Positions 6,615-37,830 of a stretch of DNA of 64,000 bases are shown here, in pieces. The DNA comes from Stenotrophomonas beteli (GTDB lineage: Bacteria; Pseudomonadota; Gammaproteobacteria; Xanthomonadales; Xanthomonadaceae), in NCBI RefSeq assembly GCF_001431665.1, contig NZ_LLXV01000021.1, positions 62,001-126,000 on the forward strand, in the 5' to 3' direction. A model generated the notes under the pieces. The model was not told where the DNA came from and made no database searches. It was given only the letters and a program-made list of their open reading frames with translations. The position numbers were made by a program, and so were the translations under genes. Positions within the stretch are counted from its first letter, which is position 1. The number at the start of each line of letters is the position of its first letter.

Positions 6615-8097
6615 GCCCGCTGAGGCTTTCGCCGCTCCACCGGACTACCAACTGTTGCCTCTGCGGTTCCGGCGCTTGCCGTGGGATCACGATCGGGCTT
6701 TCGTCTCGTCGATGGCCGGCGACTGGCTCATGATGAAGATGGAGGACGTTCAGCGCCTGGTGACCCACCAATTGCCGACCAACTCAGCCCTCTTTGCAGA
6801 TTTGGAAGCCCGGCACCTGGTCATCGGCGGGACCGACCGAAGCAGCTTGGCGCCCCTGCTTAGTCAAATTCGCAGCCGAAAGTCCTACCTGATGGGTGGC
6901 CCCGCTCTCCACATCTTCGTGGTGTCGCTGCGTTGCCACCACACCTGCAACTACTGCCAAGTGTCGCGGCAAGAAACGAACGCCACTTCCTTTGACATGG
7001 AAGGTGCGCATGCTGAACAGGCGGTCGAACGGTTGTTCGAATGGCCGAGCCGAGAGCTGACGATCGAGTTCCAAGGGGGGGAGCCCCTGCTCAATTTTGG
7101 GCAAGTGAAGGCCATCACTCGGCGGATCGTCGAGCGCAATCGGAGCGCCCGACGCACCCTGCGCTTCGTGCTTGCTTCCACCCTGCATGACCTGACCGAC
7201 GACCAGCTGGCGTTTCTGGCCGAGCACCGCTTCAAGCTCTCCACCTCGCTGGACGGTCCCGAATGGCTCCACAACGCCAACCGCCCCCGGCCCGGTCGCG
7301 ACAGCTACCGGCGGACCGTGGAAGGGATTGAACGCGGACGCCGTTGGCTGGGAGAGGATGCCGTCTCGGCGCTGACGACGCTGACCCGCCAAAGCCTCGA
7401 GGTTCCTGAGGCCATCATCGATGAGTACCAGAAGCTCGGGTTCCACAGCATCTCTCTACGTCCCTTGAGCCCCTACGGGTTCGCCACCAAGACGGCCCGG
7501 CGCACCGGCTACCCCACGGAAGACTTCCTCGCCTTCTACCGGCGCGCCTTCGACCACTTGCTGTCGATGAACCTGGCCGGCTACGCCATGGAAGAGTCCT
7601 ACGCGTCTCTCCTTCTCTCCCAGCTATTCACTTCGTTCGGGCACGGTTACGTCGATCTCCGATCGCCCTCCGGAGCCGGGTTGGGCGCCGTCATCTACGA
7701 CCACGACGGGCGGGTCTATCCGTCGGACGAGGCACGCATGCTTGCCGCCATGGGGGACGATGCCTTTGCCTTGGGCCACGTCAGCCAACCGGTCAGCCAA
7801 TGGCTGTCCTCGCCCGCCATGGCCCGCTTGCTGGACGCCGGGGTCGCCGAGGCCCTACCCACGTGCTCCGACTGCGCGTTTGTGCCGATGTGCGGCGCCG
7901 ATCCGATCGAGCACTACGCCCGCCAAGGGGATCCGATCGGCCATCGGCCCAGCAGCGACTTCTGCCAGCGGAACATGGGGCTCTTTGATTTCCTGCTGGA
8001 GCGCTACGAGAAGGCTGACCGGAACATCCAAGGGTTGATGCGCTCCTGGGCCAATCCGAAGCCATCGGTGGAGGCCGCCGTCCATGCTGCCGCTTGA
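6601..8097 (+). CDS. hxsB: His-Xaa-Ser system radical SAM maturase HxsB
   Basis: This 498-residue radical-SAM enzyme has Cys112, Cys116 and Cys119 (CHHTCNYC) to hold the SAM-binding [4Fe-4S] cluster, and FQGGEPLLNF as the SAM-contacting GGE motif. The C-terminal part (CSDCAFVPMCG..., then a further Cys in SSDFC) is a SPASM-like domain for auxiliary clusters, typical of peptide-modifying maturases. About 110 residues precede the core. It is expected to act in the cytoplasm on the HxsA repeat; the actual modification is unknown. It overlaps hxsD upstream and hxsC downstream by 14 bases each, which indicates tight coupling. Confidence 0.92.
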   Translation: MSRFRPAEAFAAPPDYQLLPLRFRRLPWDHDRAFVSSMAGDWLMMKMEDVQRLVTHQLPTNSALFADLEARHLVIGGTDRSSLAPLLSQIRSRKSYLMGGPALHIFVVSLRCHHTCNYCQVSRQETNATSFDMEGAHAEQAVERLFEWPSRELTIEFQGGEPLLNFGQVKAITRRIVERNRSARRTLRFVLASTLHDLTDDQLAFLAEHRFKLSTSLDGPEWLHNANRPRPGRDSYRRTVEGIERGRRWLGEDAVSALTTLTRQSLEVPEAIIDEYQKLGFHSISLRPLSPYGFATKTARRTGYPTEDFLAFYRRAFDHLLSMNLAGYAMEESYASLLLSQLFTSFGHGYVDLRSPSGAGLGAVIYDHDGRVYPSDEARMLAAMGDDAFALGHVSQPVSQWLSSPAMARLLDAGVAEALPTCSDCAFVPMCGADPIEHYARQGDPIGHRPSSDFCQRNMGLFDFLLERYEKADRNIQGLMRSWANPKPSVEAAVHAAA

Positions 8098-9253
8098 AAC
8101 CAGAGCGGAGCTGGCGCCGTCGGCGAAGGCCAGCCTGCTCAAGGTCGTGTCCCTGGCAGAGTTTGCCCAATCAGCGCTTCCCTTGGAGCGTCTGGCGCTG
8201 GACCTGCGGGACGTCCCAGCGGACCACTTCAGCCGTGACCTGCTAAACCTGCCTTGGGGCGCTGTCTTGCCTTCAATCGGGTTGCGTTCCCCCGGTGAGG
8301 TTCCTCTCGTTCGCCTGGAAGGTCCGCCGGGTGTTTGCAAGCCTGGGGATGTGGTGGAGCTCAACCCCCTGCAGAAGAAAGTGGCGATCCGCTATCGGCG
8401 CGGAGACACCGGCAATGTCCTGTTCGCGACCGAGCGCTGCAACAGCTACTGCCTGATGTGCTCTCAGCCGCCCCGAGACGTTCAAGACGATTGGCGGGTG
8501 AGGCACCTCTTGGACCTGATCGAGCTCATCGATCCGGAGGAACCTTCGCTGGCGATCAGCGGCGGGGAACCGACCCTGCTGGGTGACGGGTTGGTCGGCG
8601 TGGTGACCAAATGCGCGCACGTGCTGCCCAACACCCACCTGCACATCCTGTCCAACGGCCGACTGCGTGAGCCCGGCCTGCACGCGAAATTTGCGGGCCT
8701 CCATCCCAACCTGAGCTGGGGCATTCCGCTCTACGGGGACCGCTATGCTCTGCACGACTACGTGGTGCAAAGCGAGGGTGCGTTCGCTCAGACCCTTCGT
8801 GGGCTTTACGCATTGGAAGCCGCCCAGCAGCGGGTGGAGATACGGGTCGTGTTGGTCAAGCCCACTGTCGAGCGGCTGGTACAGCTGGCCCGCTACATCT
8901 GGCGCAACCTGCCCTTCGTCGAACACGTTGCACTGATGGGCATCGAGCCCATCGGGTTTGCCAAAGCCCATCAGCGTGAGCTTTGGGCCGATCCAGCGGA
9001 CTACGGTGACGTCCTGTCCGAAGCGGTGGGGCTGCTGGCCGAGGGCGGAATTCCGGTCTCACTCTACAACCTGCCCTTGTGCGCGTTGGACCGATCGCTT
9101 TGGCCCTACGCCGTGCAGAGCATTTCGCCTTGGAAGAACGACTACCTGCCCGCCTGTAGCGGCTGCTCGGTTCGGCAGCAGTGTGGCGGCTTCTTCTCTT
9201 GGGTCACGCCGGCTTGGACCAGCCGGTCCATCTCTCCCGTCTTGGAAACCTGA
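8084..9253 (+). CDS. hxsC: His-Xaa-Ser system radical SAM maturase HxsC
   Basis: This 389-residue second radical-SAM enzyme has Cys119, Cys123 and Cys126 (CNSYCLMC) for the SAM cluster and ISGGEPTLLG as the GGE motif. A C-terminal cluster segment, CSGCSVRQQCGG, resembles those of other HxsC proteins. The N-terminal 110 residues form a separate region found in this family. Two different maturases dedicated to one substrate are unusual and suggest two modifications or a two-step reaction (inference). The stop codon ends two bases before the hxsA start, so all four genes form one operon. Confidence 0.92.
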   Translation: MLPLETRAELAPSAKASLLKVVSLAEFAQSALPLERLALDLRDVPADHFSRDLLNLPWGAVLPSIGLRSPGEVPLVRLEGPPGVCKPGDVVELNPLQKKVAIRYRRGDTGNVLFATERCNSYCLMCSQPPRDVQDDWRVRHLLDLIELIDPEEPSLAISGGEPTLLGDGLVGVVTKCAHVLPNTHLHILSNGRLREPGLHAKFAGLHPNLSWGIPLYGDRYALHDYVVQSEGAFAQTLRGLYALEAAQQRVEIRVVLVKPTVERLVQLARYIWRNLPFVEHVALMGIEPIGFAKAHQRELWADPADYGDVLSEAVGLLAEGGIPVSLYNLPLCALDRSLWPYAVQSISPWKNDYLPACSGCSVRQQCGGFFSWVTPAWTSRSISPVLET

Positions 9254-10232: not shown

Positions 10233-11633
10233 ATGACCGCTCTACCCTCCTCAGCACTCACCGACTACATCGCATCGCCCTTCGGCACCCTTCATTTGGA
10301 AGGCATCCACATCGGTCGCTTCCGCATTGACCGAGCCACCATCCAAGGTCGCGAGGCGGCGATTAATCTCCAGGAATGCATCTTGGCTGCCTTGGACGAG
10401 ACCGGCCGCAAGAACACCCTGAAGAGCGGCACCCGGTATCCCCAGCAACTGCCCATGGGGACACCGGCGCGTCCCTTGGCCAAAGAGATCGATGATCACC
10501 TCGCGGACATGCGCCGCCGGCAGCTGGATCCCAAGACCGTGCTCGCCACCGAGCGCACCCTGAAGCTTCTCCTGCTGACCTGCGGCAACATTTCGGCCTG
10601 CCGCGTAGATTACAAACACATCCAAGCGTTGTGGCAGCTGCTGCGCTGGGCTCCGAAAAACCTGTTGTCGGATCCCTTGCTGAAACGCCTCAGCTTCGAT
10701 GACGCGATCACCTTGGGCAAAGAGCAGGACGTCCCGCCCTTGGCTCCGGCCACCGAAGAGCGCCATCGGCGCTTCTTGGTCGCCTTCTTCAACCACCTGG
10801 TCAACGGGCAAGCCATCGCGTCCTCGCCCATGAAGGCCTTCCGCAAACCAAAAGAAGATCACGCCATCGATCCCGACAAGGCCATCCGCCTGTTCGAGGA
10901 CGGAGACCTGCAGGCCATCTTCGACCCGGCCACCTTCATCCCTTGGGCGAGAAAGCCGCAGCACTGGTGGGCACCGATGATTGGCCTCTACACGGGTGCT
11001 CGCGTCAACGAGGTGTGCCAGCTGAAGCTAACCGACATCCTCCAGGAGCGCGGCGTCTGGTGCGTCGCCTTCCAAAAGACCATCGATGAAGACCTAGCCG
11101 CGGATCCGAAGCGCCAACGGCGGAGCCGGCAAAGCATGAAGGGAGCCGGGTGCATGCGCATCGTCCCCATCGCAAAGCGCTTGCTGGACGCCGGCTTCCT
11201 CGAGTTCGTCGAAGACATGAAGGCCACTGGCCACCCACGGCTGTTCCCCCTCCTCTCCGCTGGAGTGAACCGCAAGACTGGGGAAACCAACGCGCGTTAC
11301 AGTCAGCAGTTCGTGGTGGATTTCGGCCGCTACTTGAAGCGCCTTGGGTTCGCCAAAGGTATCGGGTTCCATGCCTTCCGCCACACCCTAGCAACCGAAT
11401 TGGATGTCAACGACGTTCCAAAGAAGGAGATTGCGCTTGTTACCGGCCATAGCACCGATCCACGGGATAGGGTCCAGGTGTTGCGCAAGCACTATCTCCA
11501 CAAGAAACCGCAGGTAACCCGGAGCAAGCAGATCAGCGCCCTGGAGTTGTATCAGCCTAACGTGGAACTGCCGCGCTACGAGCGCGGGCAGTTTGCGGAA
11601 CAGTTGCGGGACCCGACCAAGTTCCATCCGTGA
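10233..11633 (+). CDS. Tyrosine-type site-specific integrase
   Basis: This 466-residue recombinase has the catalytic set of the phage-integrase family: Arg257 (TGARVNEVC), His380 and Arg383 (HAFRHT), His406 (VTGHS) and Tyr421 (RKHYLHK). An N-terminal arm and core-binding region precedes the catalytic half. It catalyses strand exchange through a 3'-phosphotyrosine intermediate, normally to insert or excise a mobile element. It directly follows the hxs operon and leads an H-NS-like gene and unrecognised genes, so it may mark an integrated element here. No excisionase lies beside it. Its start carries a ribosome-site hairpin. Confidence 0.9.
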   Translation: MTALPSSALTDYIASPFGTLHLEGIHIGRFRIDRATIQGREAAINLQECILAALDETGRKNTLKSGTRYPQQLPMGTPARPLAKEIDDHLADMRRRQLDPKTVLATERTLKLLLLTCGNISACRVDYKHIQALWQLLRWAPKNLLSDPLLKRLSFDDAITLGKEQDVPPLAPATEERHRRFLVAFFNHLVNGQAIASSPMKAFRKPKEDHAIDPDKAIRLFEDGDLQAIFDPATFIPWARKPQHWWAPMIGLYTGARVNEVCQLKLTDILQERGVWCVAFQKTIDEDLAADPKRQRRSRQSMKGAGCMRIVPIAKRLLDAGFLEFVEDMKATGHPRLFPLLSAGVNRKTGETNARYSQQFVVDFGRYLKRLGFAKGIGFHAFRHTLATELDVNDVPKKEIALVTGHSTDPRDRVQVLRKHYLHKKPQVTRSKQISALELYQPNVELPRYERGQFAEQLRDPTKFHP

Positions 11634-17976: not shown

Positions 17977-19419
17977 TCAAGAGCCTGGCAAGCAATCCAA
18001 ACAGGCTTCCGGCGGTGGCGGTGGGATGACCAGCTTGCGCTGTATTTGACGCAAAGCCGTCCGAACACCTTCCTCGACAACCGGGTGATAGAACGGACTG
18101 TCGATCATCTGCTGGACGGTATCTCGCCGCTGAACGCTCCACGAAAGCAGGTGGCCAATGTGTTCGGCCGATGGGCCAACCATCTCTGCACCCAAGAAGG
18201 TTCCTGTGGCGCTGTCGGCGTAGACACGGATTACCCCGTGGTTCTCCAGCATGACCCGGCTGCGCCCCTGATCAGCAAACGATGCCTCTCCAACCTCAAA
18301 GGCCGCGCCACTCTCGCTCAACTGCCGGAAGGTGGCGCCCGCCATCGCGATCTGGGGGTTGGAGAACACGATCCCCAGTGGTGCCCTGCGTGGACGGGGG
18401 CGCACGTTTGGATAGCGGCCCGCGTTGTCACCTGCGATGCGGCCGTCGTCTGCGGCCTCATGAAGGATATCGGCCATCCCATTGGCATCCCCGGCAACGA
18501 AGATGTGCGGGCAGGTGCTCTGACCGGTAGCGCGGTCGACCATGGGCAGTCCGTAGCTGTCCAAACCAATACCGGCTTTGTCCAAGCCGATTCCGAGCAT
18601 GTTGGGCTTACGACCTGTCGCAGCAATCAAGAAGTCGAATGTCTCAGTGCTGCGAACACCCTCAGAATCCTCGGAAACCACTAATACGCGGCCATCCTCC
18701 GTGCGCGAGGGTGTGACCTTTGCGCCCAGGCTCACAGGAACTTCTTCAGAGAAGATGCGCGTGGCCTCCGCCGCAACCACTGGGTCGCTCAGCGGTCCGA
18801 TGAGCCGGCTGCGACCGTAAAGGCGAACCGTCACTCCAAGGCGATGCAGGGCCTGTGCCAACTCAAGGCCGATGACCCCGCTGCCAACAACGGCCACTGA
18901 GCTGGGCAGATCAGTCCACTCAAAAACGTCATCGTTCACAAGAAGCCGGTCGCCCAGCGTCTCACGCCATCCCTCCGGAACGAAGGGGCTGGACCCTGTC
19001 GCTACAACGATGCGATCAGCTTCGACGATGGTGGATGACCCGACTAAAAGCTCATGAGGGGAGAGGAACGTCGCCTTGCCGCGCAGGCGGTGCTCCTCCG
19101 GCCACGCTTCTACCGACTCCACAACGAAGCCGACGAAGCGATCACGCTCGCGGCGCACCCGAGCCATTACTTCCCGTCCGTCGACCTTGATTGCTCCAGG
19201 CATGACGCCAAAGCTCGGCGCCAACGCCAGCATATGAGCAGCATCTGCGGCACTGATGAGCAGCTTGCTCGGCATGCAGCCAACCCTCGCACAGGTGGTT
19301 CCGTAGACGCCACCTTCAATCACCACGATGCTGTCGGTATGCGCTTTGGCCGCGCGGTAGGCTGTCATTCCGGCACTGCCGGCGCCAATGATGGCGACAT
19401 CAACCTTGATACGAGTCAT
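17977..19419 (-). CDS. Dihydrolipoyl dehydrogenase-like flavoprotein
   Basis: This 480-residue class I pyridine nucleotide-disulfide oxidoreductase has an FAD-binding GAGSAGM near residue 12 and the redox disulfide CARVGC with MPSK following (about residues 43-52). The NAD(P)-binding VVGSGVIGLELA is near 180, the second FAD motif IFVAGDANG near 310, and the C-terminal HPVVEEG supplies the catalytic His-Glu. These enzymes pass electrons from NAD(P)H to a disulfide. No 2-oxoacid dehydrogenase genes are nearby. Its place as last gene of a thioredoxin/OsmC/FrnE cluster suggests it reduces a thiol carrier there (inference). An extra C-terminal CLDC pair is unusual. Confidence 0.85.
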   Translation of the reverse strand: MTRIKVDVAIIGAGSAGMTAYRAAKAHTDSIVVIEGGVYGTTCARVGCMPSKLLISAADAAHMLALAPSFGVMPGAIKVDGREVMARVRRERDRFVGFVVESVEAWPEEHRLRGKATFLSPHELLVGSSTIVEADRIVVATGSSPFVPEGWRETLGDRLLVNDDVFEWTDLPSSVAVVGSGVIGLELAQALHRLGVTVRLYGRSRLIGPLSDPVVAAEATRIFSEEVPVSLGAKVTPSRTEDGRVLVVSEDSEGVRSTETFDFLIAATGRKPNMLGIGLDKAGIGLDSYGLPMVDRATGQSTCPHIFVAGDANGMADILHEAADDGRIAGDNAGRYPNVRPRPRRAPLGIVFSNPQIAMAGATFRQLSESGAAFEVGEASFADQGRSRVMLENHGVIRVYADSATGTFLGAEMVGPSAEHIGHLLSWSVQRRDTVQQMIDSPFYHPVVEEGVRTALRQIQRKLVIPPPPPEACLDCLPGS

Positions 19420-19534
19420 CTGAGACCTCTTTTCGCCAGTGCATTGCAGTTGCCTGCAGCACGATCAGCGGAGAATGAATCGACCTCAACTTGTGGACGG
19501 CCGATTCGAACATTTCGGAGCATTCGGTTGTCGA

Positions 19535-19900
19535 CTATTGGCGTGCGCTATCGAGTCGCTTCTGAGCCCACTGCGCGATACGCGGTGCGGACAACGAGCC
19601 CAGGAGCCTGCCTACTTCTTGACCTTGCTCGTCATACATCAGGAGCATCGGCACAGCAGCGACCTTCAACGAGTCCAACAGCTGCGGATCCGTCGCTGCA
19701 TTCACCTTGAGGAATCGGGCCTTTGTGCCCATTGCCTCGGCGGCGGTAGCGAAAGCAGGCTCCATCGTCTTGCAGGGAGGACACCATGGTGCCCCTATGT
19801 AGAGCAGAAGAGGATCGGCTGTAGAGCGCGCAATGCGGTTGAATCCCATGGCGTTCACTTCTTCCACCTTCCCAACCCATGAAGGCACGGACGTGTTCAT
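19535..19900 (-). CDS. Thioredoxin-family protein with WCPPC active site
   Basis: The protein has 121 residues from ATG 19900 (GGTGAAG just upstream), with a thioredoxin fold and active site APWCPPCKTMEP at about residues 38-49. Classical thioredoxin has WCGPC; proline in the third position changes redox potential. The cis-proline loop VAAVPMLLMYDEQGQ is present. It has no signal peptide, so it is cytoplasmic. It lies between the flavoprotein gene and a second WCPPC thioredoxin in the same minus-strand operon, which suggests a dedicated thiol relay (inference). Confidence 0.85.
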   Translation of the reverse strand: MNTSVPSWVGKVEEVNAMGFNRIARSTADPLLLYIGAPWCPPCKTMEPAFATAAEAMGTKARFLKVNAATDPQLLDSLKVAAVPMLLMYDEQGQEVGRLLGSLSAPRIAQWAQKRLDSARQ

Positions 19901-19957
19901 CGCTTCACCTTCTTTGCTACGCGGGCGCCCCATAGAGGACGCCCGCTTGGTTGTGGC

Positions 19958-20287
19958 TTACTCGCCCTTTACGAACGGAGCGATCTGCTCGTGCAAAGCC
20001 TGCTTAGGCATCGCGCCGACGATCTCCTTGGCGACCTTGCCATCCACGAACACTTTCAAGGTAGGGATGGACCGCACCCCAAATCGCTGAGCCAACTCCG
20101 GGTTCTGATCGATATCGACCTTGACCACGTGGAGCTTGCCTTCAAGCTCATCGGATATCTCTTCCAAGGAAGGGGCGATGGCTCGGCAAGGCGGGCACCA
20201 AGGGGCCCAGAAGTCCACCAGCACCGGCGTCTTGCTTTCAATGACGTCGGACTCGAAGTCGAAGGTTGTCGTGCTACGGGTTGCCAT
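19958..20287 (-). CDS. Thioredoxin, WCPPC type
   Basis: This 109-residue protein is close to canonical thioredoxin in length, with VDFWAPWCPPCRAIAPSLEE as the active-site helix, VDIDQNPELAQRFGVRSIPT carrying the cis-proline, and the usual C-terminal G and F/V pattern. The start ATG 20287 has a GAGGTG ribosome site; the longer frame adds only MRCD. It shares the WCPPC motif with its neighbour but is otherwise different in sequence, so the pair is not a recent duplication. Likely a cytoplasmic electron carrier within the redox operon. Confidence 0.9.
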   Translation of the reverse strand: MATRSTTTFDFESDVIESKTPVLVDFWAPWCPPCRAIAPSLEEISDELEGKLHVVKVDIDQNPELAQRFGVRSIPTLKVFVDGKVAKEIVGAMPKQALHEQIAPFVKGE

Positions 20288-20327
20288 GTCACACCTCATC
20301 TGTAGCCCGCATTAGCGGGGTAGTTGA

Positions 20328-21449
20328 TCAGACGACTTCTGCGGCGGCGCTAGCGCCATCGTAGGTCGGATAGTCCGTGTAACCCTTGGCTCCGATCACG
20401 CCATAGAAGGTGGACGGATCAGGCTTTGCCAGCGGCCAGCCGTTCTTCATCCGCTCCACCAGGTCGGGGTTGGAGATGAAGTTGGTGCCGAACGCAATCA
20501 GGTCGAGCTCGCCCTTGGCCAGTTCCGCCTCGGCCAGCTCCTGGGTGAACCCACCTGCACCGATCAGCGTGCCCTGATATGCCTTTCGGAACGCGGCGCC
20601 GAAGCCAGCCGGCGTGCCCGCTGCCGAGATCGTGGTCTGGTAGTTCAGATGCACGAACGCCAGGGTCCGCTCGTTCAGAGCCGAGGCCATGCTTGCCCAC
20701 GCTTCAGCCTCGCCTTCGAAGGCCTCCATATCGTAGATGCGACCAAACGGGGACACGCGAACGCCCACCTTCTCGCCGCCAATTTCAGCCGCGACCGCGT
20801 CGATGGTTTCCAGCAGCAGACGCTGACGGTTCTCGATCGACCCACCATACTGGTCGGTGCGGGTATTGAGCTTGCTGCTCAGGAACTGGTCGAACAGGAA
20901 CGCGTTGGCGGCCATCAGTTCGACGCCATCGAAGCCCGCATCCATCGCACGACGCGCAGACGAGGCGAAGTCCTGAATGACACGCTTGACCTCATCGGTG
21001 GTCAGTGCACGCGGCTTGCTCGGAAGCACCGGGCCTTCCTTGCCAGGCTCGACCCATGCGTAGACCATCGTGGTGGTCGCCGGCACGTCGCCCGACGACA
21101 CCGGCGCGACGTTGCCCGGCTGCAGCGAGACGTGCGACAGCCTACCGACGTGCCAGAGCTGGGCAAAGATCTTGCCGCCATTGGCATGCACCGCATCGGT
21201 GACTTTACGCCAGCCTTCGGTCTGCTCATCGGTGTAGAGGCCGGGGGTATACAGGTATCCACGACCCTCATCGGAGACCGGAAGGCCCTCGGTGATGATC
21301 AGACCGGCCGAGGCGCGTTGGCCGTAGTAGAGCGCCGTCAGTTCGCTCGGGATGTTCTCCGGCGTGCGGGTGCGGGTCATCGGGGCCATGACGACGCGGT
21401 TTGCCAGCGGCAAGCCGGAAAGGTCGTAGGTAGTGAACAGCTTGCTCAT
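20328..21449 (-). CDS. Old Yellow Enzyme family ene-reductase with altered active site
   Basis: This 373-residue flavoprotein has the family's (beta/alpha)8 barrel. Visible parts are the N-terminal NRVVMAPMTRTR, the FMN-side FAQLWHVGRLSH, LNTRTDQYGGSIENRQR, and IGAGGF/IAFGTNFISNPDLVERM near the C-terminus. These enzymes use NAD(P)H to reduce activated alkenes, quinones or nitro compounds. The canonical substrate-binding segment E-L-H-x-A-(N/H)-G-Y reads E-L-M-A-A-N-A-F (residues 177-184). The anchoring His is Met179 and the proton-donor Tyr is Phe184. The protein is otherwise full length, so this is divergence rather than decay. Confidence 0.9.
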   Translation of the reverse strand: MSKLFTTYDLSGLPLANRVVMAPMTRTRTPENIPSELTALYYGQRASAGLIITEGLPVSDEGRGYLYTPGLYTDEQTEGWRKVTDAVHANGGKIFAQLWHVGRLSHVSLQPGNVAPVSSGDVPATTTMVYAWVEPGKEGPVLPSKPRALTTDEVKRVIQDFASSARRAMDAGFDGVELMAANAFLFDQFLSSKLNTRTDQYGGSIENRQRLLLETIDAVAAEIGGEKVGVRVSPFGRIYDMEAFEGEAEAWASMASALNERTLAFVHLNYQTTISAAGTPAGFGAAFRKAYQGTLIGAGGFTQELAEAELAKGELDLIAFGTNFISNPDLVERMKNGWPLAKPDPSTFYGVIGAKGYTDYPTYDGASAAAEVV

Positions 21450-21519
21450 GATGGTCTCTCTTTATTGAATACGCAGTGCGAAGGGGCTGCTGCTACAGGT
21501 GCTGTAAATGGAGGAAGGC

Positions 21520-22080
21520 TCAGCCCTCGACGACTTCGAGCTTCGGAACCATGCGGATTGCCTTGGAGAAGTTGGCGTAGTTCACCGAGGTTTTAGTAAC
21601 GGTTCTGTGCAGCTCTTCCACTTGCTCGCGCGATCCATCTGTGTGCAGCCGAACCACGTAGCTCACCTCGTCGTAGCCAGGATTGACGCTCTCATCCAGG
21701 CCCAGCACGCCGCGCAGATCGAGCTCGCCATCGGTTTCGATTTCCAAGCTGTGGATCGTGATGCCCATGGCAGCAGCATTGACCGCATAGCCCACCGACA
21801 AGCACGCATTGAGGGCGGCCATGAGCAGTTCCTGCGGATTCGGCGCCGTGTTCTGACCCAGGAACTCCAGCGGTTCATCCGCGGCAATCTCGAAGTGGCG
21901 CTTGTACTCTTCACCGCGGATCGAATACCGGCTCACGGTCGCAACGCTGCGGGTCTGGTTCTCCCACTTCGTCTTCACGTTGAAACGGGCACTACGCTTT
22001 GCAGGCTCAGTGGTTGCGGCGACTTCTTGTGCGACAGCCTGAAGAGCAGAGACGTCAATGCCGTTGAGGTTGGTGGTCAT
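21520..22080 (-). CDS. OsmC/Ohr-family protein
   Basis: The protein has 186 residues from ATG 22080 (AAGGACC upstream); a longer frame to 22137 lacks a ribosome site. The OsmC fold is recognised from the central helix PNPQELLMAALNACLSVGYA with the peroxidatic cysteine and the preceding FLGQNTAPN. The second cysteine of hydroperoxide-reducing members is not found in the expected C-terminal stretch (TVTKTSVNYANFS), so catalysis would need an external thiol. OsmC proteins remove organic hydroperoxides or bind thiols. It sits in the operon led by the FrnE-like gene. Confidence 0.85.
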   Translation of the reverse strand: MTTNLNGIDVSALQAVAQEVAATTEPAKRSARFNVKTKWENQTRSVATVSRYSIRGEEYKRHFEIAADEPLEFLGQNTAPNPQELLMAALNACLSVGYAVNAAAMGITIHSLEIETDGELDLRGVLGLDESVNPGYDEVSYVVRLHTDGSREQVEELHRTVTKTSVNYANFSKAIRMVPKLEVVEG

Positions 22081-22186
22081 TTGAATGGTCCTTTCAAGAA
22101 TGCGCCCTTGGCGCGTTGAAGTGCATCGGAAGGGCATCGAGCCACTTCCTTAGATTTATCGATATCTCGTTGCGTGTCCGGAAGGC

Positions 22187-22867
22187 TCAATGGCAGCCGT
22201 CGATGCCGCAGCTTTCGCCTTCGCCGGCGACACTCATTGGCGCTGGCATCTCACGGGCTGCTTCAAGGATGGCGCGTTCGAACACATCCACTTCTCGAGC
22301 ACCGGAGACAAACACCTTGTTGTTGAACAAGAACAACGGAACGCCATTGGCGATCTGGTTTGCATCCATTTCATCGCGTCCGATCTCAGCGGCGATGCGC
22401 TCAGAGTCGAACTCGAACAAGGTGTCCGTCACGCCGACCTCTTTGGCAAGCGATGCCAGGACGTCCTGGTCAAAGATGTCGATGCCATCGGTGGTCGCTG
22501 CTTTGTAGATGCGCTCGCTCAGCAGCTGGGACACCACCGGGGAGCGGATACTCTTGACCAGCGCATGCGCAACCGTCGTATCACCGAAACGCATGGTGTC
22601 GAAGTTGTAGACCAAGCCTTCCAGGATGCCATTCGTGCTGACGGCCGCCATCATCCGATCTGCGCCCGCCGGCCCGCCCAGCTTCTGATACAACGCGGTC
22701 TTGTAGTCCATGGGCTTGCCCCCTCGCGCAAGGCGATAGGCCTTGTGAGTCACCTCAACCTGGACCTGCCCTGCGAGCGAGACAACCGCCTTTTCAAAGC
22801 GTTTCTTCGCAATCCAGCACCACGGGCAGACGTAGTCCGACCAGATGTCCACCTTGACCGTTTTCAT
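22187..22867 (-). CDS. FrnE-like DsbA-family oxidoreductase
   Basis: The protein has 226 residues from ATG 22867, with GGAG six bases upstream. The N-terminal thioredoxin strand leads into DYVCPWCWIAKKRFE, the CPWC active site of the FrnE branch. The inserted helical domain follows, and then NGVPLFLFNNKVFVSGA with the cis-proline. An extra C-terminal CGIDGC pair resembles the second disulfide of FrnE proteins. It has no signal peptide, so it is a cytoplasmic thiol oxidoreductase. It is the first gene after a CTACC-N8-GGTAG operator and probably leads the operon that runs down to the flavoprotein gene. Confidence 0.88.
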   Translation of the reverse strand: MKTVKVDIWSDYVCPWCWIAKKRFEKAVVSLAGQVQVEVTHKAYRLARGGKPMDYKTALYQKLGGPAGADRMMAAVSTNGILEGLVYNFDTMRFGDTTVAHALVKSIRSPVVSQLLSERIYKAATTDGIDIFDQDVLASLAKEVGVTDTLFEFDSERIAAEIGRDEMDANQIANGVPLFLFNNKVFVSGAREVDVFERAILEAAREMPAPMSVAGEGESCGIDGCH

Positions 22868-22898
22868 GACGCTCTCCATTAATCCGAGCAGATGCGAA

Positions 22899-22916
22899 CT
22901 ACCATTCAGTCGGTAG
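22899..22916. promoter_or_regulatory. Operator copy 1, CTACC-N8-GGTAG
   Basis: CTACC at 22899-22903 and GGTAG at 22912-22916 flank eight bases, 32 bp upstream of the FrnE-like start. The same arms and spacing occur at 23574 and 24816. Probable binding site of the TetR-family repressor encoded next door. Confidence 0.7.
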
Positions 22917-22979
22917 GCTAAGCATCTGTAAAAAATGCCGTGCGAGCCCTCAGTGCTTGAAGGCAGCACCGCGATAAGG

Positions 22980-23543
22980 TCAGGCGTTTTCGACGATCAG
23001 CCTGATGACACTTGGCTGCAACGAGTCGGCGTCTTTGGTGGCCCAGTTGATGAAGCTGGAGCCCTCCAGAACACTGAGAAGCAGGAATGCTTTCTGCCTG
23101 GCGCCACTGCCTTTGGGGATTTGCTTGAGCTTGATGCCTTGCTCCAGCATTCGGGTGAGCCAAGTCAGCTGCATCTCAAAGAACCGCTGAGTCAATTGCT
23201 GCATGCTCGGTGGCAACGCGGACATCTCTGCAGCCAGCGCCCCGCATAGAGGGAGCAACTTGCCGTCGTCACCAGATTTAAAGATCTGGAAAAAGGCTTC
23301 AAGGCGGGCAACCACATCGCTGTGCTGAACCTCAACACGATCGAACTCGGTGCGGACTCGTTCAATGTAGTCCTCCACGATTGCCCCGCCCAAGTCTTCC
23401 TTGGTCGGGAAATGGTGATGGATGCTTGCCTTGCGAATGCCGACAACCTCAGCGAGGTCCGCGTAACTGAAGGCGCTGTAGCCGCGGGTTCGCATCAGGT
23501 TTTCAGCGGTGTGAACCAGGGCGTCGCGTGTGCCAACGGCCAT
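22980..23543 (-). CDS. TetR/AcrR-family transcriptional regulator
   Basis: This 187-residue protein has a typical TetR N-terminal helix-turn-helix, LMRTRGYSAFSYADLAEVVG followed by IRKASIHHHFPTKEDL (residues 17-53). The C-terminal helical ligand domain includes MLEQGIKLKQIPKGS and SSFINWATKDADSL. Such proteins usually repress neighbouring genes until a small molecule binds. It is flanked by genes for electrophile and peroxide handling. The CTACC-N8-GGTAG palindrome lies upstream of its own start and at two further starts in the cluster. The inducer is unknown; a cysteine near residue 100 (PLCGALAAE) could serve as a sensor (inference). Confidence 0.92.
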   Translation of the reverse strand: MAVGTRDALVHTAENLMRTRGYSAFSYADLAEVVGIRKASIHHHFPTKEDLGGAIVEDYIERVRTEFDRVEVQHSDVVARLEAFFQIFKSGDDGKLLPLCGALAAEMSALPPSMQQLTQRFFEMQLTWLTRMLEQGIKLKQIPKGSGARQKAFLLLSVLEGSSFINWATKDADSLQPSVIRLIVENA

Positions 23544-23573
23544 CTCGATACCTCCACTTTGATGAGATCAACT

Positions 23574-23591
23574 CTACCTACCACATGGTAG
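23574..23591. promoter_or_regulatory. Operator copy 2, CTACC-N8-GGTAG
   Basis: CTACC 23574-23578 and GGTAG 23587-23591 lie inside a longer near-perfect palindrome, CTACCTACCACATGGTAGTT. It is 31 bp upstream of the tetR start, which suggests autoregulation. Confidence 0.75.
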
Positions 23592-23638
23592 TTAGTCAAT
23601 GCCCAACGACAACCTCATTGCCGTCGTTGGGCTGCGGT

Positions 23639-23989
23639 TTACGCACCAATCTCGTCATACGCCTCAAGAGCGCGCGAGGAGTAGACATAGGCGGCGCCGG
23701 CATTGAGTGCGATGGCGGTGCCCAGGGCAGCGGCGATTTCTTCCTTGGTCGCCCCGGCCTTCTTGGCCGCGCCGGCATGTGCAGCGATACACCCATCGCA
23801 ACGGGTGGTCACAGCCACCGCGAGCGAGATCAGCTCATGGGTCTTGGCGTCCAGCACGTTGCCCTCACGGGTAGCGAGCTCCAGCTTATGGAAGGCGCTG
23901 GCCACAGGGGCATTGGCCTTGTTGAAGCCACTGACACGCTTGATGAGCGACTTCAGCTCTTCGGTCCACTTCTTTTCCATTTCGTTCAC
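23639..23989 (-). CDS. Carboxymuconolactone decarboxylase/AhpD-like protein
   Basis: This 116-residue single-domain protein of the CMD/AhpD superfamily has the motif VTTRCDGCIAAHAGAAKKAG at about residues 60-80. It holds the CxxC pair and downstream His used by AhpD for thiol-dependent peroxidase chemistry. It lacks the extra features of true protocatechuate-pathway decarboxylases. It begins 14 bases after the SDR stop and shares its promoter. The start may be MEKKWTEEL, three codons in. Likely a cytoplasmic peroxide or electrophile defence enzyme. Confidence 0.88.
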   Translation of the reverse strand: MNEMEKKWTEELKSLIKRVSGFNKANAPVASAFHKLELATREGNVLDAKTHELISLAVAVTTRCDGCIAAHAGAAKKAGATKEEIAAALGTAIALNAGAAYVYSSRALEAYDEIGA

Positions 23990-24003
23990 CTTTGTATGTT
24001 GGA

Positions 24004-24798
24004 TTAATTGCCGAGCTTGCGAGCAGCCATGACGCCGCCGTCAACGTCCCAGACCGCGCCGGTCACCCAGGAGGCCTTGTCAGACAGCAGGAAGATGACG
24101 GTCTCTGCAACGTCGCGCGGTGTGCCATTGCGACCCAGCGGGTGGAAGCTCTTGAATGCATCCAAAGCCCCAGTGAGTTGCTCGCCGGGGATGAAGCGCT
24201 CAAAGATCTTGGTTTCCACCATGCCGGGGCTGACTGCGTTCACGCGGATGCCGTGCTCCGCCAGCTCTGCAGCAACGTGCCTGGTCATTGCATCCAACCC
24301 CATCTTGGCCATCGAGTAGGCGGGCGCCTTCACCGTTTCGATGGCCTGGCGGGCCGCAACAGCGGTGACGTTGACGATCGAACCCGGCTTCTTCTGCGCG
24401 ACCAGCGAAGCGGCCACCTGCTGGGTGATGAAGAACAGCGAGCGATTCAGGTCGAGGAAGTTGTTGTAGTCCTCAATCGAGTGCTCCAAGAATGCCTTCG
24501 GATAGAAGATGCCTGCCGTGTTGACGAGGAGGTCAATGTCGCTGTGTTCCGCCGCCAGCTTTGCAAGCAACGTCTGCACGCTTTCCGGGTTCGAGAGATC
24601 TGCGGCGAAAGCAGCTGCCTTGCCCTCCCCCGCTACGGCCGCCAACTGCTGGCGCGCAACCTCTGCCTTTTCCGGGCGATTGCCGACCACAACGACCGCG
24701 CCGCCCTGCTCGGCCACCATTTGGGCGACCTCCAGGCCGATCCCACTGCTGCCACCCACGACCAACAACTTGCGACCGTCGAACTGTTTGATGTCCAT
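24004..24798 (-). CDS. Short-chain dehydrogenase/reductase
   Basis: This 264-residue protein has the classical SDR features: the cofactor motif GGSSGIGLE at about residues 14-22, LVNTAG near 88, a serine/threonine in IVNVTAVAAR, the catalytic YSMAK near 158, and VNAVSPGMV after it. The second strand ends in NRPEKAE rather than an acidic residue, which favours NADP(H) (inference). It is the first gene of a two-gene unit with the AhpD-like protein. A CTACC-N8-GGTAG operator lies 18 bp before its start. Substrate unknown; a carbonyl detoxifier would fit. Confidence 0.9.
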   Translation of the reverse strand: MDIKQFDGRKLLVVGGSSGIGLEVAQMVAEQGGAVVVVGNRPEKAEVARQQLAAVAGEGKAAAFAADLSNPESVQTLLAKLAAEHSDIDLLVNTAGIFYPKAFLEHSIEDYNNFLDLNRSLFFITQQVAASLVAQKKPGSIVNVTAVAARQAIETVKAPAYSMAKMGLDAMTRHVAAELAEHGIRVNAVSPGMVETKIFERFIPGEQLTGALDAFKSFHPLGRNGTPRDVAETVIFLLSDKASWVTGAVWDVDGGVMAARKLGN

Positions 24799-24815
24799 CT
24801 GATTGGCCCTTATGC

Positions 24816-24833
24816 CTACCTAGTGGTTGGTAG
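24816..24833. promoter_or_regulatory. Operator copy 3, CTACC-N8-GGTAG
   Basis: CTACC 24816-24820 and GGTAG 24829-24833 flank eight bases, just upstream of the SDR start. The match extends to CCTACC/GGTAGG. Same arms and spacing as the copies at 22899 and 23574. Confidence 0.75.
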
Positions 24834-24982
24834 GCTATGCCGATGATCGATGGGTGTCAAGAAAGACTCGCGGCCTTTTCATTCAGCTTGTTCAGGTCTA
24901 GCCCTGAACCACCTAGGGAGCCCTGGGCTGACCTTGGTCAGCCATAGCAGGTCGATAAATAGTGGAGCGCCGCAAAAGGACG

Positions 24983-29265: not shown

Positions 29266-30039
29266 TCACGACACTTCTTTGTCTCGGGCAAAAGGCCGCA
29301 CTGGCACACCCATCGCATCCCCTGGTGCCCAACGCGCCTCCAGATCATTGGCTCGCTGGACGGCTTGCGCTTCGCAGAGTTCACGCATCGCCGCCTGCAA
29401 CACCTTTGCGAAGGCGGCATGGTAGGGCTCACGCGTCTCCCCGTTGACCCAAGGCGCCTGCAATGCAGCTTCAACCGTGGCGTCCCATAGGTCACCCCGT
29501 TCAAGCGCACCGCTGAGCACTTGGTCGCTCACCACCAGGACATGCCCAGCCACCCGGCCATCCACCAGTGCCCACTCATGGGGAACCAGGGCAATGTCAT
29601 CGAGCGTGGCCAGCGTTGCGATACGCCCCAACTTCTTCTGAAGCCGGCTTGCATCGTCCCGGGCCTGCCGCAGGGCCAGTTCTATTTCCAGCTCACGAAC
29701 CCGTTGTTGGGCTGCGTCCAGTTCGTCGATCAGGCGACGCTCTTTGACACTGCGCCCCACGCGGGAGGCCTGCCAAGCGACAAGTTCGGTGTAAGGGTAA
29801 CGGACGTGCTCGTTGGCCCCTCCACCAGCGCGGCCGGCGCCTTTCACAAAGGGCGGCCCTGCAGGAGGCGTTCGGCGGCGCCACTCGCCAAGCGTATCGA
29901 AGTGGACCCCGAGGTAACGCGCCGCTGCTTTGGTGCTGACCGTAGGAGGCGGCAAGCCTGCGGCGGCTTTGTTCAGCTCAGCATCCAGTGCCGCAGAGCG
30001 CTGCTCCAGGTAATCCTCTTCTTTGCGTTGGCATTCCAT
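29266..30039 (-). CDS. Putative DNA-binding protein paired with the integrase
   Basis: The protein has 257 residues from ATG 30039 (GGAG seven bases before); a longer frame overlaps the integrase and is a shadow. Residues 35-55, TKAAARYLGVHFDTLGEWRR, form a helix-turn-helix like those of MerR/excisionase-type proteins. A coiled-coil follows (KERRLIDELDAAQQRVRELE and on). The C-terminal 100 residues are unrecognised. It starts 11 bases after the integrase stop on the same strand, so it is probably co-expressed and may be the directionality factor or a regulator of the element (inference). Confidence 0.6.
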   Translation of the reverse strand: MECQRKEEDYLEQRSAALDAELNKAAAGLPPPTVSTKAAARYLGVHFDTLGEWRRRTPPAGPPFVKGAGRAGGGANEHVRYPYTELVAWQASRVGRSVKERRLIDELDAAQQRVRELEIELALRQARDDASRLQKKLGRIATLATLDDIALVPHEWALVDGRVAGHVLVVSDQVLSGALERGDLWDATVEAALQAPWVNGETREPYHAAFAKVLQAAMRELCEAQAVQRANDLEARWAPGDAMGVPVRPFARDKEVS

Positions 30040-30050
30040 TGGGTCGCTCC

Positions 30051-31964
30051 TTACTGGGCGTCGCGCCGGTTTCTTGCTGAGAAAATGGAGACTGGGGCAT
30101 CGCCGGACTCGTCCAACCGAGGCTTGTCCGTCCCCTTCAAGCGATTCCAGACACGAGGACTGGTCGCGACCATGTGCTCCTCCACGCGGCCCATAGCCTC
30201 GCGAAGCTTTGACCATTCCTGCTCGGTGTAGCGTTCGGAGACAGCGGCCATGCGATCCTCGCCTCGCCCCAACGTTCTGTGGTGGAGCAGTTGGGACACG
30301 ATTCGACTTTCGCCGAACAGGAGGGCGGCGTAACGGCCGAGCGTCCGGCGCAGATCGTGGAGGGTCAGCCCAATGTCCACCTCTGCCCGCAAATCGAGCA
30401 ACCCCGCGTCCCGGCGCACGTTTGCCACGATGCTCTTGCTGTCCGAGTAGTGCCCCGTGGTGCTTCGGTCCGATCGGGCGGGGAACACGAACATGGTTTT
30501 GGCCAGCGCGCGGCGTGCCCTCTCCACCTCTTTTTCCAGCCGGTCCAGCAGATCCCGGCGTGCACGCCTGGCTCGAGCGGCGCCCAACACTTCTTCCGCG
30601 TCCGCCAAGTCTTGCTTGAGCTTGGTTTCGTCCGCGCGCTCGTCGAAACGCCGCTGCAAAATCTTTTCAGCAAAGTAGGCCACCGGCAGGTAGCGCTCCT
30701 CGCCATTCTTGGTGTCAAACAAGTAAACCTGAGAGCCCGCTCGCCTCGTGTAAGGGTTGACCTCCTCCGGCCCGGCCAACCATACCCAGGACACTTCCGA
30801 CTGGCGCAGCTCGCCCGGGGAGCACCGGTCAAACCAGCGCAGGGGAGCGGCCTCGCCGCGGCGGGTACCCCAGAGCAGGGTCAGCAGCAAGTAGTCCGCG
30901 CCGGTCGCGTTCAAGCCGCCTTGCTCGTCCCGCCGAGCCAAGATCACTTTGAGGACCGTAGGCAGCGTCTCGTCCCCTAACGGATTGCGCACTTCGGCGC
31001 GCTCGTAGTGTCGGCGCAGTGCTTGCGAGTCCCGCAGCATGTCGTCGTCGTGGATGACTTGGAACGGGTTGTAACGCAGCACCGGCTCCCGCTGCTGCTG
31101 AGCCGCCGCTTTGCGCTCCCGCTTCAACACCAGGTCGACCGCCCTCTTCGCGTCTGTGAACGCGTGCTCGGTCGACGCCAAACCGGCCGCTTTGACTCGC
31201 TGGATGTATTTCCCGGTCACGCCCAACGCTTCGAGCTGTTGCGTGGAGAGCTCGGCCCAATCCGACTGGTCGGCCAGTGCTTGGCGCATCGGGGTGGGGA
31301 TCCGATTGGAGCGCACCATGGACGATCGCCGCAGGCCGTCGAACGCACGGTGGATGTCCTTGTCCAGAAGCTGAAGGATCGGTTTGTCCGCGAGCCCGAC
31401 TTCCGGGCGGGCAAACCGCGCCAAACTGTCTTGGATCGCCCGGATGCTGGCGGGCTTGGCTTTCTTGTTGCGGACGCGCTTCTGCAGGTCCTCAACGTAG
31501 GCCGCAAAGCAATCCGCCAGCGTGAGCCCCTTCAGCTCCACGAGCTGCTCGGCTCGGGCCTCTTCCTTCGAAGGATGCTCGCCCGTTTCTCGAACCACGG
31601 CCAACTTCCGCCGCGCCAGCTCGTAGGCTTGCTCCGGTCCGATGTCGGTGACGCTGCCCAGGGAAAACCGACGAACCCCGGCCGGGCCTCGGACCACGAC
31701 TTCATAGGTGGTGCGGGTAGTGCCCACGTAGAAACCAAAGCCCGTTGGCGCCCCCTGATTGCCGTCCAGGACGCGGTAAGGCTTCCCGGCGTCTTCGGGC
31801 AGTCGAGGGGCGATGACCACCCTTCCCTGCTTGCCTTCGACCGGGCCTCGCGCCACGCTCAACTCGCAGATTTGCCGGTAGGTCAGCTTAAACTTGGTGC
31901 CTCGGCGGCGCGGGGCCGCAACAACCGTATCCATGGTCGATCCGCCGTCTGTCCGTCGCAACAT
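30051..31964 (-). CDS. Large tyrosine-type integrase next to mutS
   Basis: The protein has 637 residues from ATG 31964 (GAGG nine bases upstream); ATG 31934 is an alternative. The catalytic domain is recognised by LLWGTRRGEAAPLRW (first Arg), LTLHDLRRTLGRYAA (His-x-x-Arg), LLHHRTLG and the tyrosine in SERYTEQEW. The N-terminal 300 residues are long for this family, and a coiled-coil insertion (about residues 430-485, rich in Arg/Glu/Ala) lies inside the catalytic half. It is divergent to mutS with about 100 bp between, the position expected if the element inserted at the mutS 5' end. Confidence 0.85.
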   Translation of the reverse strand: MLRRTDGGSTMDTVVAAPRRRGTKFKLTYRQICELSVARGPVEGKQGRVVIAPRLPEDAGKPYRVLDGNQGAPTGFGFYVGTTRTTYEVVVRGPAGVRRFSLGSVTDIGPEQAYELARRKLAVVRETGEHPSKEEARAEQLVELKGLTLADCFAAYVEDLQKRVRNKKAKPASIRAIQDSLARFARPEVGLADKPILQLLDKDIHRAFDGLRRSSMVRSNRIPTPMRQALADQSDWAELSTQQLEALGVTGKYIQRVKAAGLASTEHAFTDAKRAVDLVLKRERKAAAQQQREPVLRYNPFQVIHDDDMLRDSQALRRHYERAEVRNPLGDETLPTVLKVILARRDEQGGLNATGADYLLLTLLWGTRRGEAAPLRWFDRCSPGELRQSEVSWVWLAGPEEVNPYTRRAGSQVYLFDTKNGEERYLPVAYFAEKILQRRFDERADETKLKQDLADAEEVLGAARARRARRDLLDRLEKEVERARRALAKTMFVFPARSDRSTTGHYSDSKSIVANVRRDAGLLDLRAEVDIGLTLHDLRRTLGRYAALLFGESRIVSQLLHHRTLGRGEDRMAAVSERYTEQEWSKLREAMGRVEEHMVATSPRVWNRLKGTDKPRLDESGDAPVSIFSARNRRDAQ

Positions 31965-32070
31965 CGATTTGATCCTCTTTGAATGACTGGCGCAACCGCG
32001 GCGCAACGAAGAACCCCGTTACTTGCCGCAAGTCGCCTGGATTGATCGCTACAACCCGTAGGAAGTTCTC

Positions 32071-35586: not shown

Positions 35587-37830
<2,244 letters not shown>

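What the first reader, a model, noticed from the sequence alone, without database searches (positions are those of the whole stretch)
22899..24833. Three-site TetR regulon for thiol/electrophile defence
CTACC-N8-GGTAG occurs with identical arms and spacing at 22899, 23574 and 24816, that is upstream of the FrnE-like gene, of tetR itself and of the SDR gene. These are the three starts expected for the minus-strand cluster. The predicted regulon covers an FrnE protein, OsmC, Old Yellow Enzyme, two thioredoxins, a flavoprotein disulfide reductase, an AhpD-like protein and an SDR.
Basis: partly seen in the sequence, partly recalled or inferred. Interest (0 to 1): 0.68.

Follow-up and report, generated by a model that had tools for sequence, protein, structure and literature searches.

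The report
Three-operator allicin tolerance regulon
A bacterium, probably a Stenotrophomonas, carries on a stretch of foreign-looking DNA a cluster of redox genes resembling those other bacteria use to survive garlic and onion toxins, with three copies of a control sequence placed where the cluster's own repressor would bind; the kind of system is known, but the shared control sequence speaks to a detail left open in print.

Summary
CTACC-N8-GGTAG occurs exactly at 22899, 23574 and 24816, 17-31 bp upstream of the frnE/dsbA, tetR and SDR starts, and nowhere else in the 4.48-Mb genome. A motif learned from related clusters without the window is the same 18-mer on the same axis; the three sites are its best matches in 64 kb.

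The genes form a thiosulfinate (allicin) tolerance cluster, alt/TTG type, as in Pseudomonas PfAR-1. The TetR is AltR-like: it falls in a clade with both PfAR-1 types, and its only cysteine aligns with Pantoea AltR Cys100, reported essential for thiosulfinate response. I infer repression relieved by modification of Cys100.

Beyond the papers seen: both Pantoea boxes published as separate (AltR box, IR2) contain this 18-mer, with 2 mismatches each, and it precedes 44 of 51 related TetR genes without an alt neighbourhood, cyanobacterial and actinobacterial ones included. So the operator marks the regulator subfamily; gene content marks the function. No binding, induction or tolerance was measured. 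New member of a known kind.

The parts
22899..22916 (.). Operator 1, CTACCATTCAGTCGGTAG, upstream of frnE/dsbA; shares two bases with a TAGCCT hexamer (22920-22915, - strand) that is not kept in congener G414; no clear -35
   Evidence: (18.5 bits)
23574..23591 (.). Operator 2, CTACCTACCACATGGTAG, upstream of tetR; fills most of the spacer between TTGACT (23599-23594) and TAGAGT (23576-23571) on the - strand and shares three bases with the latter; 18 of 18 identical in congener G414
   Evidence: (23.0 bits)
24816..24833 (.). Operator 3, CTACCTAGTGGTTGGTAG, upstream of the SDR gene; begins in the -10-like TAGCCT (24837-24832) that follows TTGACA (from 24860) at 17 bp on the - strand; TTGAC and TAGCCT are kept in G414
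   Evidence: (28.7 bits)
22980..23543 (-). altR-like TetR-family repressor, 187 aa, single cysteine Cys100 in an LPLCGALAAE motif
   Evidence: PF00440 42.3 bits, PF16925 27.7 bits; tree; alignment with P. ananatis AltR
24004..24798 (-). Short-chain dehydrogenase/reductase, 264 aa
   Evidence: PF13561; 52-86% identical to SDRs in five of the six clusters compared, none found in the sixth
23639..23989 (-). AhpD-like / carboxymuconolactone decarboxylase family protein, 116 aa, CDGC motif
   Evidence: PF02627, TIGR00778
22187..22867 (-). FrnE-like DsbA-family oxidoreductase, 226 aa, CPWC motif (start taken at MKTVKVD)
   Evidence: PF01323 96 bits
21520..22080 (-). OsmC-like protein, 186 aa (start taken at MTTNLNG; a longer ORF begins at 22137)
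   Evidence: PF02566
20328..21449 (-). Old Yellow Enzyme / alkene reductase (NemA-like), 373 aa
   Evidence: PF00724 264.5 bits; PRK10605 364.5 bits, below its cut-off of 403
19958..20299 (-). Thioredoxin 1, CPPC active site
   Evidence: PF00085; TIGR01068 119.5 bits, cut-off 96.8
19535..19900 (-). Thioredoxin-like protein 2, CPPC active site (start taken at MNTSVPSW)
   Evidence: PF00085 58 bits
17977..19419 (-). Flavoprotein disulfide reductase, PRK06292-type 'dihydrolipoyl dehydrogenase' with CARVGC redox site and an extra C-terminal CxxC; stands in for the gor gene of some published clusters
   Evidence: NF004939 672.7 bits, cut-off 435; tails compared
17983..24837 (-). Block shared at 93.7% with congener G414; it ends at 24837, just beyond operator 3, so genes and three operators form one unit

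Best explanation
This is an alt-type thiosulfinate (allicin) tolerance cluster, acquired horizontally, controlled by its own AltR repressor through three operators. Without the toxin an AltR dimer sits on each 18-bp operator, at the edge of the -10 region (SDR, probably frnE) or in the -35/-10 spacer (altR), and blocks three - strand transcripts: sdr-ahpD, altR, and frnE-osmC-oye-trx1-trx2-reductase. Allium-type thiosulfinates modify the single cysteine Cys100, AltR lets go, and the redox proteins are made: DsbA/FrnE-like, AhpD-like, OsmC-like and thioredoxin proteins and a flavoprotein disulfide reductase, which would undo mixed disulfides and restore thiols. Shown here: the sites, their rarity and conservation, the gene set, the AltR grouping, and Cys100 as the only cysteine. 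Inferred: binding, repression, the promoters and transcripts, the inducer and the tolerance.
For: Three exact sites, unique in the genome, at three gene starts. EM without a palindrome prior, on 176 non-redundant upstream regions from 36 related loci (no window sequence), finds CTACCAACTAGTAGGTAG with the N8 axis the most symmetric (0.686; next 0.557); the window sites are the three best-scoring places in 64 kb at 28.7, 23.0 and 18.5 bits, the next distinct place 11.7. Operators more conserved than flanks against G414. Same gene order SDR-AhpD-TetR-DsbA-OsmC-OYE in Sphingobium pTomMM15b and, with the OYE match in two pieces, B. cenocepacia pBCPS27. PfAR-1, characterised for allicin resistance, carries osmC, sdr, tetR, dsbA/frnE-like, trx, ahpD and oye, and all seven have matches here. 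AltR falls in a 41-row clade, 38 of them labelled alt, with both PfAR-1 TetR types (96/92). Cys100 is the sole cysteine and aligns with Pantoea Cys100; KASIHHHFPTKE is identical in all five rows of that alignment. The published Pantoea work reports repression, an operator requirement, Cys100 dependence and thiosulfinate specificity.
Against: Nothing was measured. The operator is not specific to alt clusters: 44 of 51 related TetR genes without an alt neighbourhood have it upstream, so it cannot by itself tell the inducer; the PLC motif around Cys100 is not specific either (13 of those 51 have it). In loci with three or more alt genes only 11 of 43 tetR genes have the operator within 250 bp upstream of themselves; in the Pseudomonas type the sites lie before osmC and ahpD instead. 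The alt label is not one clade on the tree (5 changes needed; Pantoea AltR lies outside the 41-row clade, and long branches meet near it). OsmC is only 31% identical to Pantoea's. The window's operator centres have drifted from the ACTAGT core. KefC/KefF, 4-OT and a Gor are missing. The promoter scan found 1 promoter-like site against a mean of 2.0 in shuffles, and no terminator-like site between the genes.
Confidence: 0.83

Rival explanations
1. A NemR-like general reactive-electrophile or reactive-chlorine regulon: the same three-operator repressor, but induced by quinones, aldehydes, N-ethylmaleimide or hypochlorite, with OYE and SDR as the main detoxifying enzymes.
For: The TetR is distantly related to E. 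coli NemR (4yze, E = 7.6e-6); the OYE is NemA-like (PRK10605 364.5 bits, below cut-off); the operator is shared with many TetR loci outside alt clusters.
Against: The regulator groups with cluster-encoded AltRs; FrnE, AhpD, OsmC and thioredoxins beside it are the alt set; Pantoea AltR is reported not to respond to NEM, diamide or H2O2; no NemR model is among the 13 NCBIfam matches.
Confidence: 0.1
2. Not exclusive of the best explanation: the cluster is an alt-type cassette, but in this host it serves mainly against another sulfur electrophile, for example Brassica thiosulfinates, isothiocyanates or polysulfides, rather than Allium toxins.
For: The records seen for the nearest clusters (Corticibacterium, S. 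rhizophila, Sphingobium) name no Allium source, though only titles were seen for the first two. The AltR paper notes that dimethyl thiosulfinate is also made by Brassica. The reductase differs from the Gor of known clusters.
Against: No evidence here separates the compounds; the known alt clusters were characterised with allicin.
Confidence: 0.3
3. The sites are chance or are bound by another factor, and the cluster is not one regulon.
For: No binding data; exact arms of only 5 bp; drifted centres (4, 3 and 2 mismatches to the family consensus).
Against: Three exact matches in the genome, all at these starts; independently derived motif; conservation above flanks; 84 sites within 4 mismatches in 35 related loci and the window (4 of them in the window) against 3.9 in single-base shuffles.
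Confidence: 0.03

Closest known systems
alt thiosulfinate-tolerance cluster and AltR of Pantoea ananatis PNA 97-1R (PMC13178969; L121)
   Same: TetR repressor with Cys100; OsmC, DsbA, OYE, SDR, AhpD, thioredoxins; inverted repeats in several intergenic regions. The perfect AltR box and the perfect IR2 each contain the 18-mer found here, with 2 mismatches each.
   Different: AltR 37% identical; two further cysteines in Pantoea; gorA, a DMT transporter and a PLP enzyme there, a PRK06292-type reductase here; different gene order; OsmC 31%. The published boxes are written as 8-bp arms around N6.
Allicin-resistance islands of Pseudomonas fluorescens PfAR-1 (PMC7119367; L046, L075)
   Same: osmC, sdr, tetR, dsbA/frnE-like, trx, ahpD and oye, with OsmC 76%, OYE 74% and TetR 53% identical; operator-like sites before osmC and ahpD (3 and 1 mismatches).
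   Different: Two gene sets, with 4-ot, kefF and kefC and gor; no operator above threshold directly before its tetR genes.
Plasmid clusters: Burkholderia cenocepacia pBCPS27, Sphingobium pTomMM15b, Pseudomonas aeruginosa pKLC102 (L034, L035, L038)
   Same: SDR-AhpD-TetR-DsbA-OsmC-OYE in the same order in the first two (OYE match in two pieces in pBCPS27); TetR 62-69% identical; operators before the SDR gene in all three.
   Different: Shorter; no match to the thioredoxins or the flavoprotein reductase within the 9 kb held on each side; pKLC102 has only four of the genes.
E. coli NemR-NemA electrophile response
   Same: TetR repressor with a redox cysteine, co-transcribed with a reductase gene nemA (as told in the AltR paper).
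   Different: Only remote sequence similarity; reported inducers include NEM, bleach and diamide.

Membership tests
alt / thiosulfinate tolerance gene cluster | Clustered thiol-redox genes: osmC, sdr, dsbA/frnE, trx, ahpD, oye with a tetR | tested here: met
alt / thiosulfinate tolerance gene cluster | Glutathione reductase (gor), kefFC and 4-ot, as in PfAR-1 | tested here: not met
   None of the nine genes of 17977-24798 matches these families best. The PRK06292 reductase is 29% identical over residues 33-369 to its best match in the Pantoea cluster. Published alt clusters vary in content and gor is not shared by all, so I do not treat these genes as defining.
alt / thiosulfinate tolerance gene cluster | Confers tolerance to allicin or other thiosulfinates | not testable with these tools
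   needs a mutant or heterologous assay
AltR | TetR-family protein | tested here: met
   PF00440 42.3 bits, cut-off 24
AltR | Groups with AltRs of known clusters | tested here: met
   41-row clade with both PfAR-1 types, 96/92; Pantoea AltR lies outside it, inside a 58-row clade of 99/97 that also holds 16 rows not labelled alt; the alt label as a whole is not one clade
AltR | Cysteine equivalent to Cys100 | tested here: met
   same column and same number; sole cysteine (sequence)
AltR | Inverted-repeat operator in its own promoter and before cluster genes | tested here: met
   as sequence only, no binding
AltR | Derepression by thiosulfinates and not by NEM, diamide or H2O2 | not testable with these tools
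   needs a reporter assay
NemR | NCBIfam-level membership or close similarity to NemR | tested here: not met
   No NemR model among 13 NCBIfam matches at E up to 0.001, and none of the 13 reaches its cut-off; 4yze at E = 7.6e-6 only

The most novel reading that the evidence does not exclude
One 18-bp operator, YWAYCWACTAGTWGRTWR, is the ancestral binding site of a whole AltR-like TetR subfamily spanning proteobacteria, cyanobacteria, actinobacteria and planctomycetes; alt clusters arose by gathering redox genes under it. The AltR box and IR2 of Pantoea are then a single kind of AltR site, and the one-cysteine AltR of this window is a minimal thiosulfinate switch that works with Cys100 alone. 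The flavoprotein reductase with a C-terminal CxxC tail would be the cluster's own thioredoxin reductase.
Probability: 0.4. Interest if true: 0.58.

Novelty: new member of a known kind. Interest (0 to 1): 0.4.

Why it matters
It adds a well-defined carrier, probably a Stenotrophomonas, to the hosts of a mobile garlic/onion-toxin tolerance cassette, and it offers a sequence answer to a question the 2026 AltR paper leaves open, namely whether AltR reads both the AltR box and IR2: both contain the same 18-mer. The motif also gives a simple way to look for regulons of this repressor subfamily, within and outside alt clusters.

Tried and rejected
N6 reading of the operator (as published for Pantoea): considered because site 2 also reads CTACCTAC-N6-GTAGTTAG. 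Against the published N6 consensus the sites have 3, 1 and 2 mismatches. I do not take it as the main axis because the unconstrained motif is most symmetric on the N8 axis (0.686 against 0.557). Not settled: the two perfect Pantoea boxes are 8 of 8 palindromic in the N6 register and, counted by eye, 6 of 9 in the N8 register, so two overlapping registers remain possible.

The axis table used sites picked with a palindromic seed and is therefore biased; I rely instead.

A phage record as source: no match of the TetR in 50,697 phage records. A tRNA in the window as attachment site: none found. Further operators elsewhere in the genome: no other exact site; at one mismatch 59 places against 320 in the control, uninformative, and only the listed part was seen.

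Literature: six literal operator strings were searched in the held library and gave one paper, on melanoma; a looser search listed 12 of 5,713 papers, none of which I opened and none of whose titles names AltR or thiosulfinates. So I found no report of this 18-mer in those searches of open-licence papers. Papers: PMC13178969 parts 1-3 of 7 and passages; PMC12306174 parts 1-2 of 9 and passages; PMC7119367 outline and passages; all others only in listings.
Full report
Observation. CTACC-N8-GGTAG is present exactly at 22899-22916, 23574-23591 and 24816-24833. With one mismatch allowed, 6 matches are found against 0.68 expected, and none of 100 shuffles reached 6. The whole genome has just these three exact places; the reversed control pattern has 20. 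They precede the ATGs taken for frnE/dsbA, tetR and the SDR gene by 31, 30 and 17 bp.

Genes. On the - strand from 24798 to 17977: SDR (PF13561), AhpD-like (PF02627), TetR (PF00440, PF16925), FrnE/DsbA-like (PF01323), OsmC (PF02566), Old Yellow Enzyme (PF00724), two thioredoxins (PF00085) and a flavoprotein disulfide reductase (NF004939, 672.7 bits, cut-off 435). This is the set described for allicin resistance in Pseudomonas PfAR-1: osmC, sdr, tetR, dsbA/frnE-like, trx, ahpD, oye, plus 4-ot, kefF and kefC (passages seen). Against PfAR-1, OsmC is 76% and OYE 74% identical; against Pantoea ananatis PNA 97-1R the OYE is 66%, the SDR 52% and OsmC only 31%.

Relatives. A TetR alignment was used to fetch 79 loci from genome records, beside 7 plasmid loci. 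The closest are Corticibacterium sp. (82%) and Stenotrophomonas rhizophila GN_RF2.1 (80%). Corticibacterium has the gene order from SDR to the second thioredoxin and then only a remnant of the reductase. OsmC and OYE are 95% and 94% identical to that alphaproteobacterium, and the S. rhizophila TetR groups with the Corticibacterium one and not with the window's (100/96): horizontal transfer. Among 395 genomes drawn from the window's family, 6 including its own have a TetR match at E up to 1e-40; of these only G414 is a congener, at 97%. G414 shares 17983-24837 at 93.7%, ending just beyond operator 3.

Motif. Without any window sequence and without a palindrome prior, EM on 176 non-redundant upstream regions of 36 loci gives CTACCAACTAGTAGGTAG; its most symmetric axis is that of the N8 reading. 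Scored over the window, the three sites come out on top (28.7, 23.0, 18.5 bits; next distinct place 11.7). In 35 related loci plus the window, 84 sites (4 in the window, two of them overlapping; some loci are near copies) lie within 4 mismatches of CTACCWACTAGTWGGTAG, against 3.9 in single-base shuffles. Between the window and G414 the operators keep 49 of 54 positions and the flanks 182 of 276 (p = 8.9e-5). In G414 two of the three sites match CTACC-N8-GGTAG exactly; the third has one changed arm base.

Promoters. Operator 2 lies in the 17-bp spacer between TTGACT and TAGAGT and touches the latter. Operator 3 begins in TAGCCT, which follows TTGACA at 17 bp; TTGAC and TAGCCT are kept in G414. 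Operator 1 touches the same hexamer, but there it is not kept in G414 and no -35 is evident. The geometry fits steric repression, but the promoter scan as a whole found no excess over shuffles (1 against 2.0) and no terminator-like site between the genes, so promoters and transcripts are inferred.

Regulator. The window TetR has one cysteine, Cys100, in LPLCGALAAE. It aligns with Pantoea AltR Cys100, which the AltR paper reports as essential for thiosulfinate derepression while Cys101 and Cys159 tune it (parts 1-3 of 7 read). Four of the seven other members of alignment A1 also have a single cysteine. In loci with at least three alt genes, 42 of 43 TetRs read PLC at this place and one (L083, a doubtful alt locus) reads CLC; outside them 13 of 51 also read PLC, so the motif is not exclusive. 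The DNA-reading stretch KASIHHHFPTKE is identical in the five rows; it varies slightly among the eight. On the tree the window lies in a 41-row clade (38 labelled alt, that is with four or more alt genes; the other 3 have three) together with both PfAR-1 types (96/92). The alt label as a whole needs 5 changes, and Pantoea AltR sits outside that clade where long branches meet.

Unifying the Pantoea boxes. The paper describes an AltR box, CAATCTAC-N6-GTAGATTG, and a second repeat, IR2, TTACCAAC-N6-GTTGGTAA; it says AltR may recognise both and leaves it open. In the PNA 97-1R cluster the 18-mer occurs, with 1 to 3 mismatches, at five intergenic places; the perfect AltR box and the perfect IR2 each contain one. 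I therefore expect AltR to read both. The register is not finally settled (see Tried and rejected).

A wider family. Upstream of 51 related TetR genes with fewer than three alt genes in the DNA held around them, 44 have a motif score above the 99% level of shuffled sequence, among them genes of Methylobacterium, Hyphomicrobium, Lysobacter, Actinokineospora, cyanobacteria and a planctomycete. Those loci were not used to build the motif; for a few only a short contig was held. Five of the six cyanobacterial ones have an SDR gene directly downstream. So the operator belongs to a repressor subfamily, and the function here rests on gene content and regulator grouping. Against simple autoregulation everywhere: only 11 of 43 tetR genes in loci with three or more alt genes have the site just upstream of themselves.

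Host and setting. A 2-kb COX1-family oxidase gene of the window is 90% identical to that of S. rhizophila GN_RF2.1, 99% and 89% in two congeners, and 67-69% over part of its length in two Lysobacter; the peroxidase gene at 35593 is 87% in S. rhizophila against 71-76% in two Lysobacter and Corticibacterium. The host is therefore very probably a Stenotrophomonas; this is inference. GC per kb is 53-65% up to about 32 kb and 64-71% in 28 of the 32 kb beyond, and 55-64% in the 60 kb to the left on the same contig. An integrase-like protein (phrog_1, E = 6.5e-9) and an excisionase-like one (phrog_66, E = 1.4e-7) lie at 29266-31970 near this step. The cluster thus seems to lie in a long integrated region.

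Prior work. DeepBGC mining already linked alt-like clusters to S. maltophilia, and an altC/altE pair from a strain of it was tested (passages seen; parts 1-2 of 9 read). This is therefore a new member of a known kind. What I did not find in the parts of papers seen is the common 18-mer.

Reductase. Where some published clusters have gor there is a PRK06292-type reductase whose C-terminus carries CLDC. Three plasmid-collection relatives, chosen among 15 listed because their match reached the end, close with CMDCGPGA, CIDCGPGG and CLECGPGA; most of the other listed matches stop near residue 463, and four relatives from the window's order and one from Pseudorhodoferax show no such CxxC in their last 40 residues. 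Together with two thioredoxins this suggests, but does not show, a dedicated thioredoxin-reducing pair.

The TAGCCT hexamer at operator 1 is not conserved in G414, as I had first written it was; several counts were qualified.

Noticed in passing
17977-19419; L136, L137, L138: Flavoprotein reductase with a C-terminal CxxC tail (CLDC here; C-x-D/E-C-G-P-G in three selected relatives), reminiscent of tails that shuttle electrons in large thioredoxin reductases (recalled).
   Followed up: partly
6601-9253: His-Xaa-Ser system radical SAM maturases HxsB (554.8 bits, cut-off 370) and HxsC (364.1 bits, cut-off 267.9) side by side: a peptide-modifying system in the same low-GC region.
   Followed up: no
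4474-5619: Pectate lyase (PF00544, 185.8 bits) in the same low-GC region, which hints at plant association.
   Followed up: no
10233-11633; L123:7948-9348: Two ORFs with nearly the same N-terminus (MTALPSSALTDYIA / MTALPSAALTDYIA), about 42 kb apart on the contig; the window one is an integrase (PF00589), the other was not searched: possible repeated integration modules.
   Followed up: partly
29266-32006: Integrase-like (phrog_1) and excisionase-like (phrog_66) proteins at the GC step near 32 kb; no Pfam match at E up to 1e-5.
   Followed up: partly
L093, L094, L109, L113, L116, L117, L077: In five cyanobacteria and two others a related TetR is followed by an SDR gene; all but L117 have the operator upstream of the TetR. 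Possibly the ancestral pair.
   Followed up: no
L038; plasmid matches: pKLC102 of P. aeruginosa carries SDR, TetR, AhpD and DsbA of this kind, and 882 Klebsiella plasmid records have a TetR match under 60% identity, some near 41%; whether those lie in alt clusters was not checked.
   Followed up: partly
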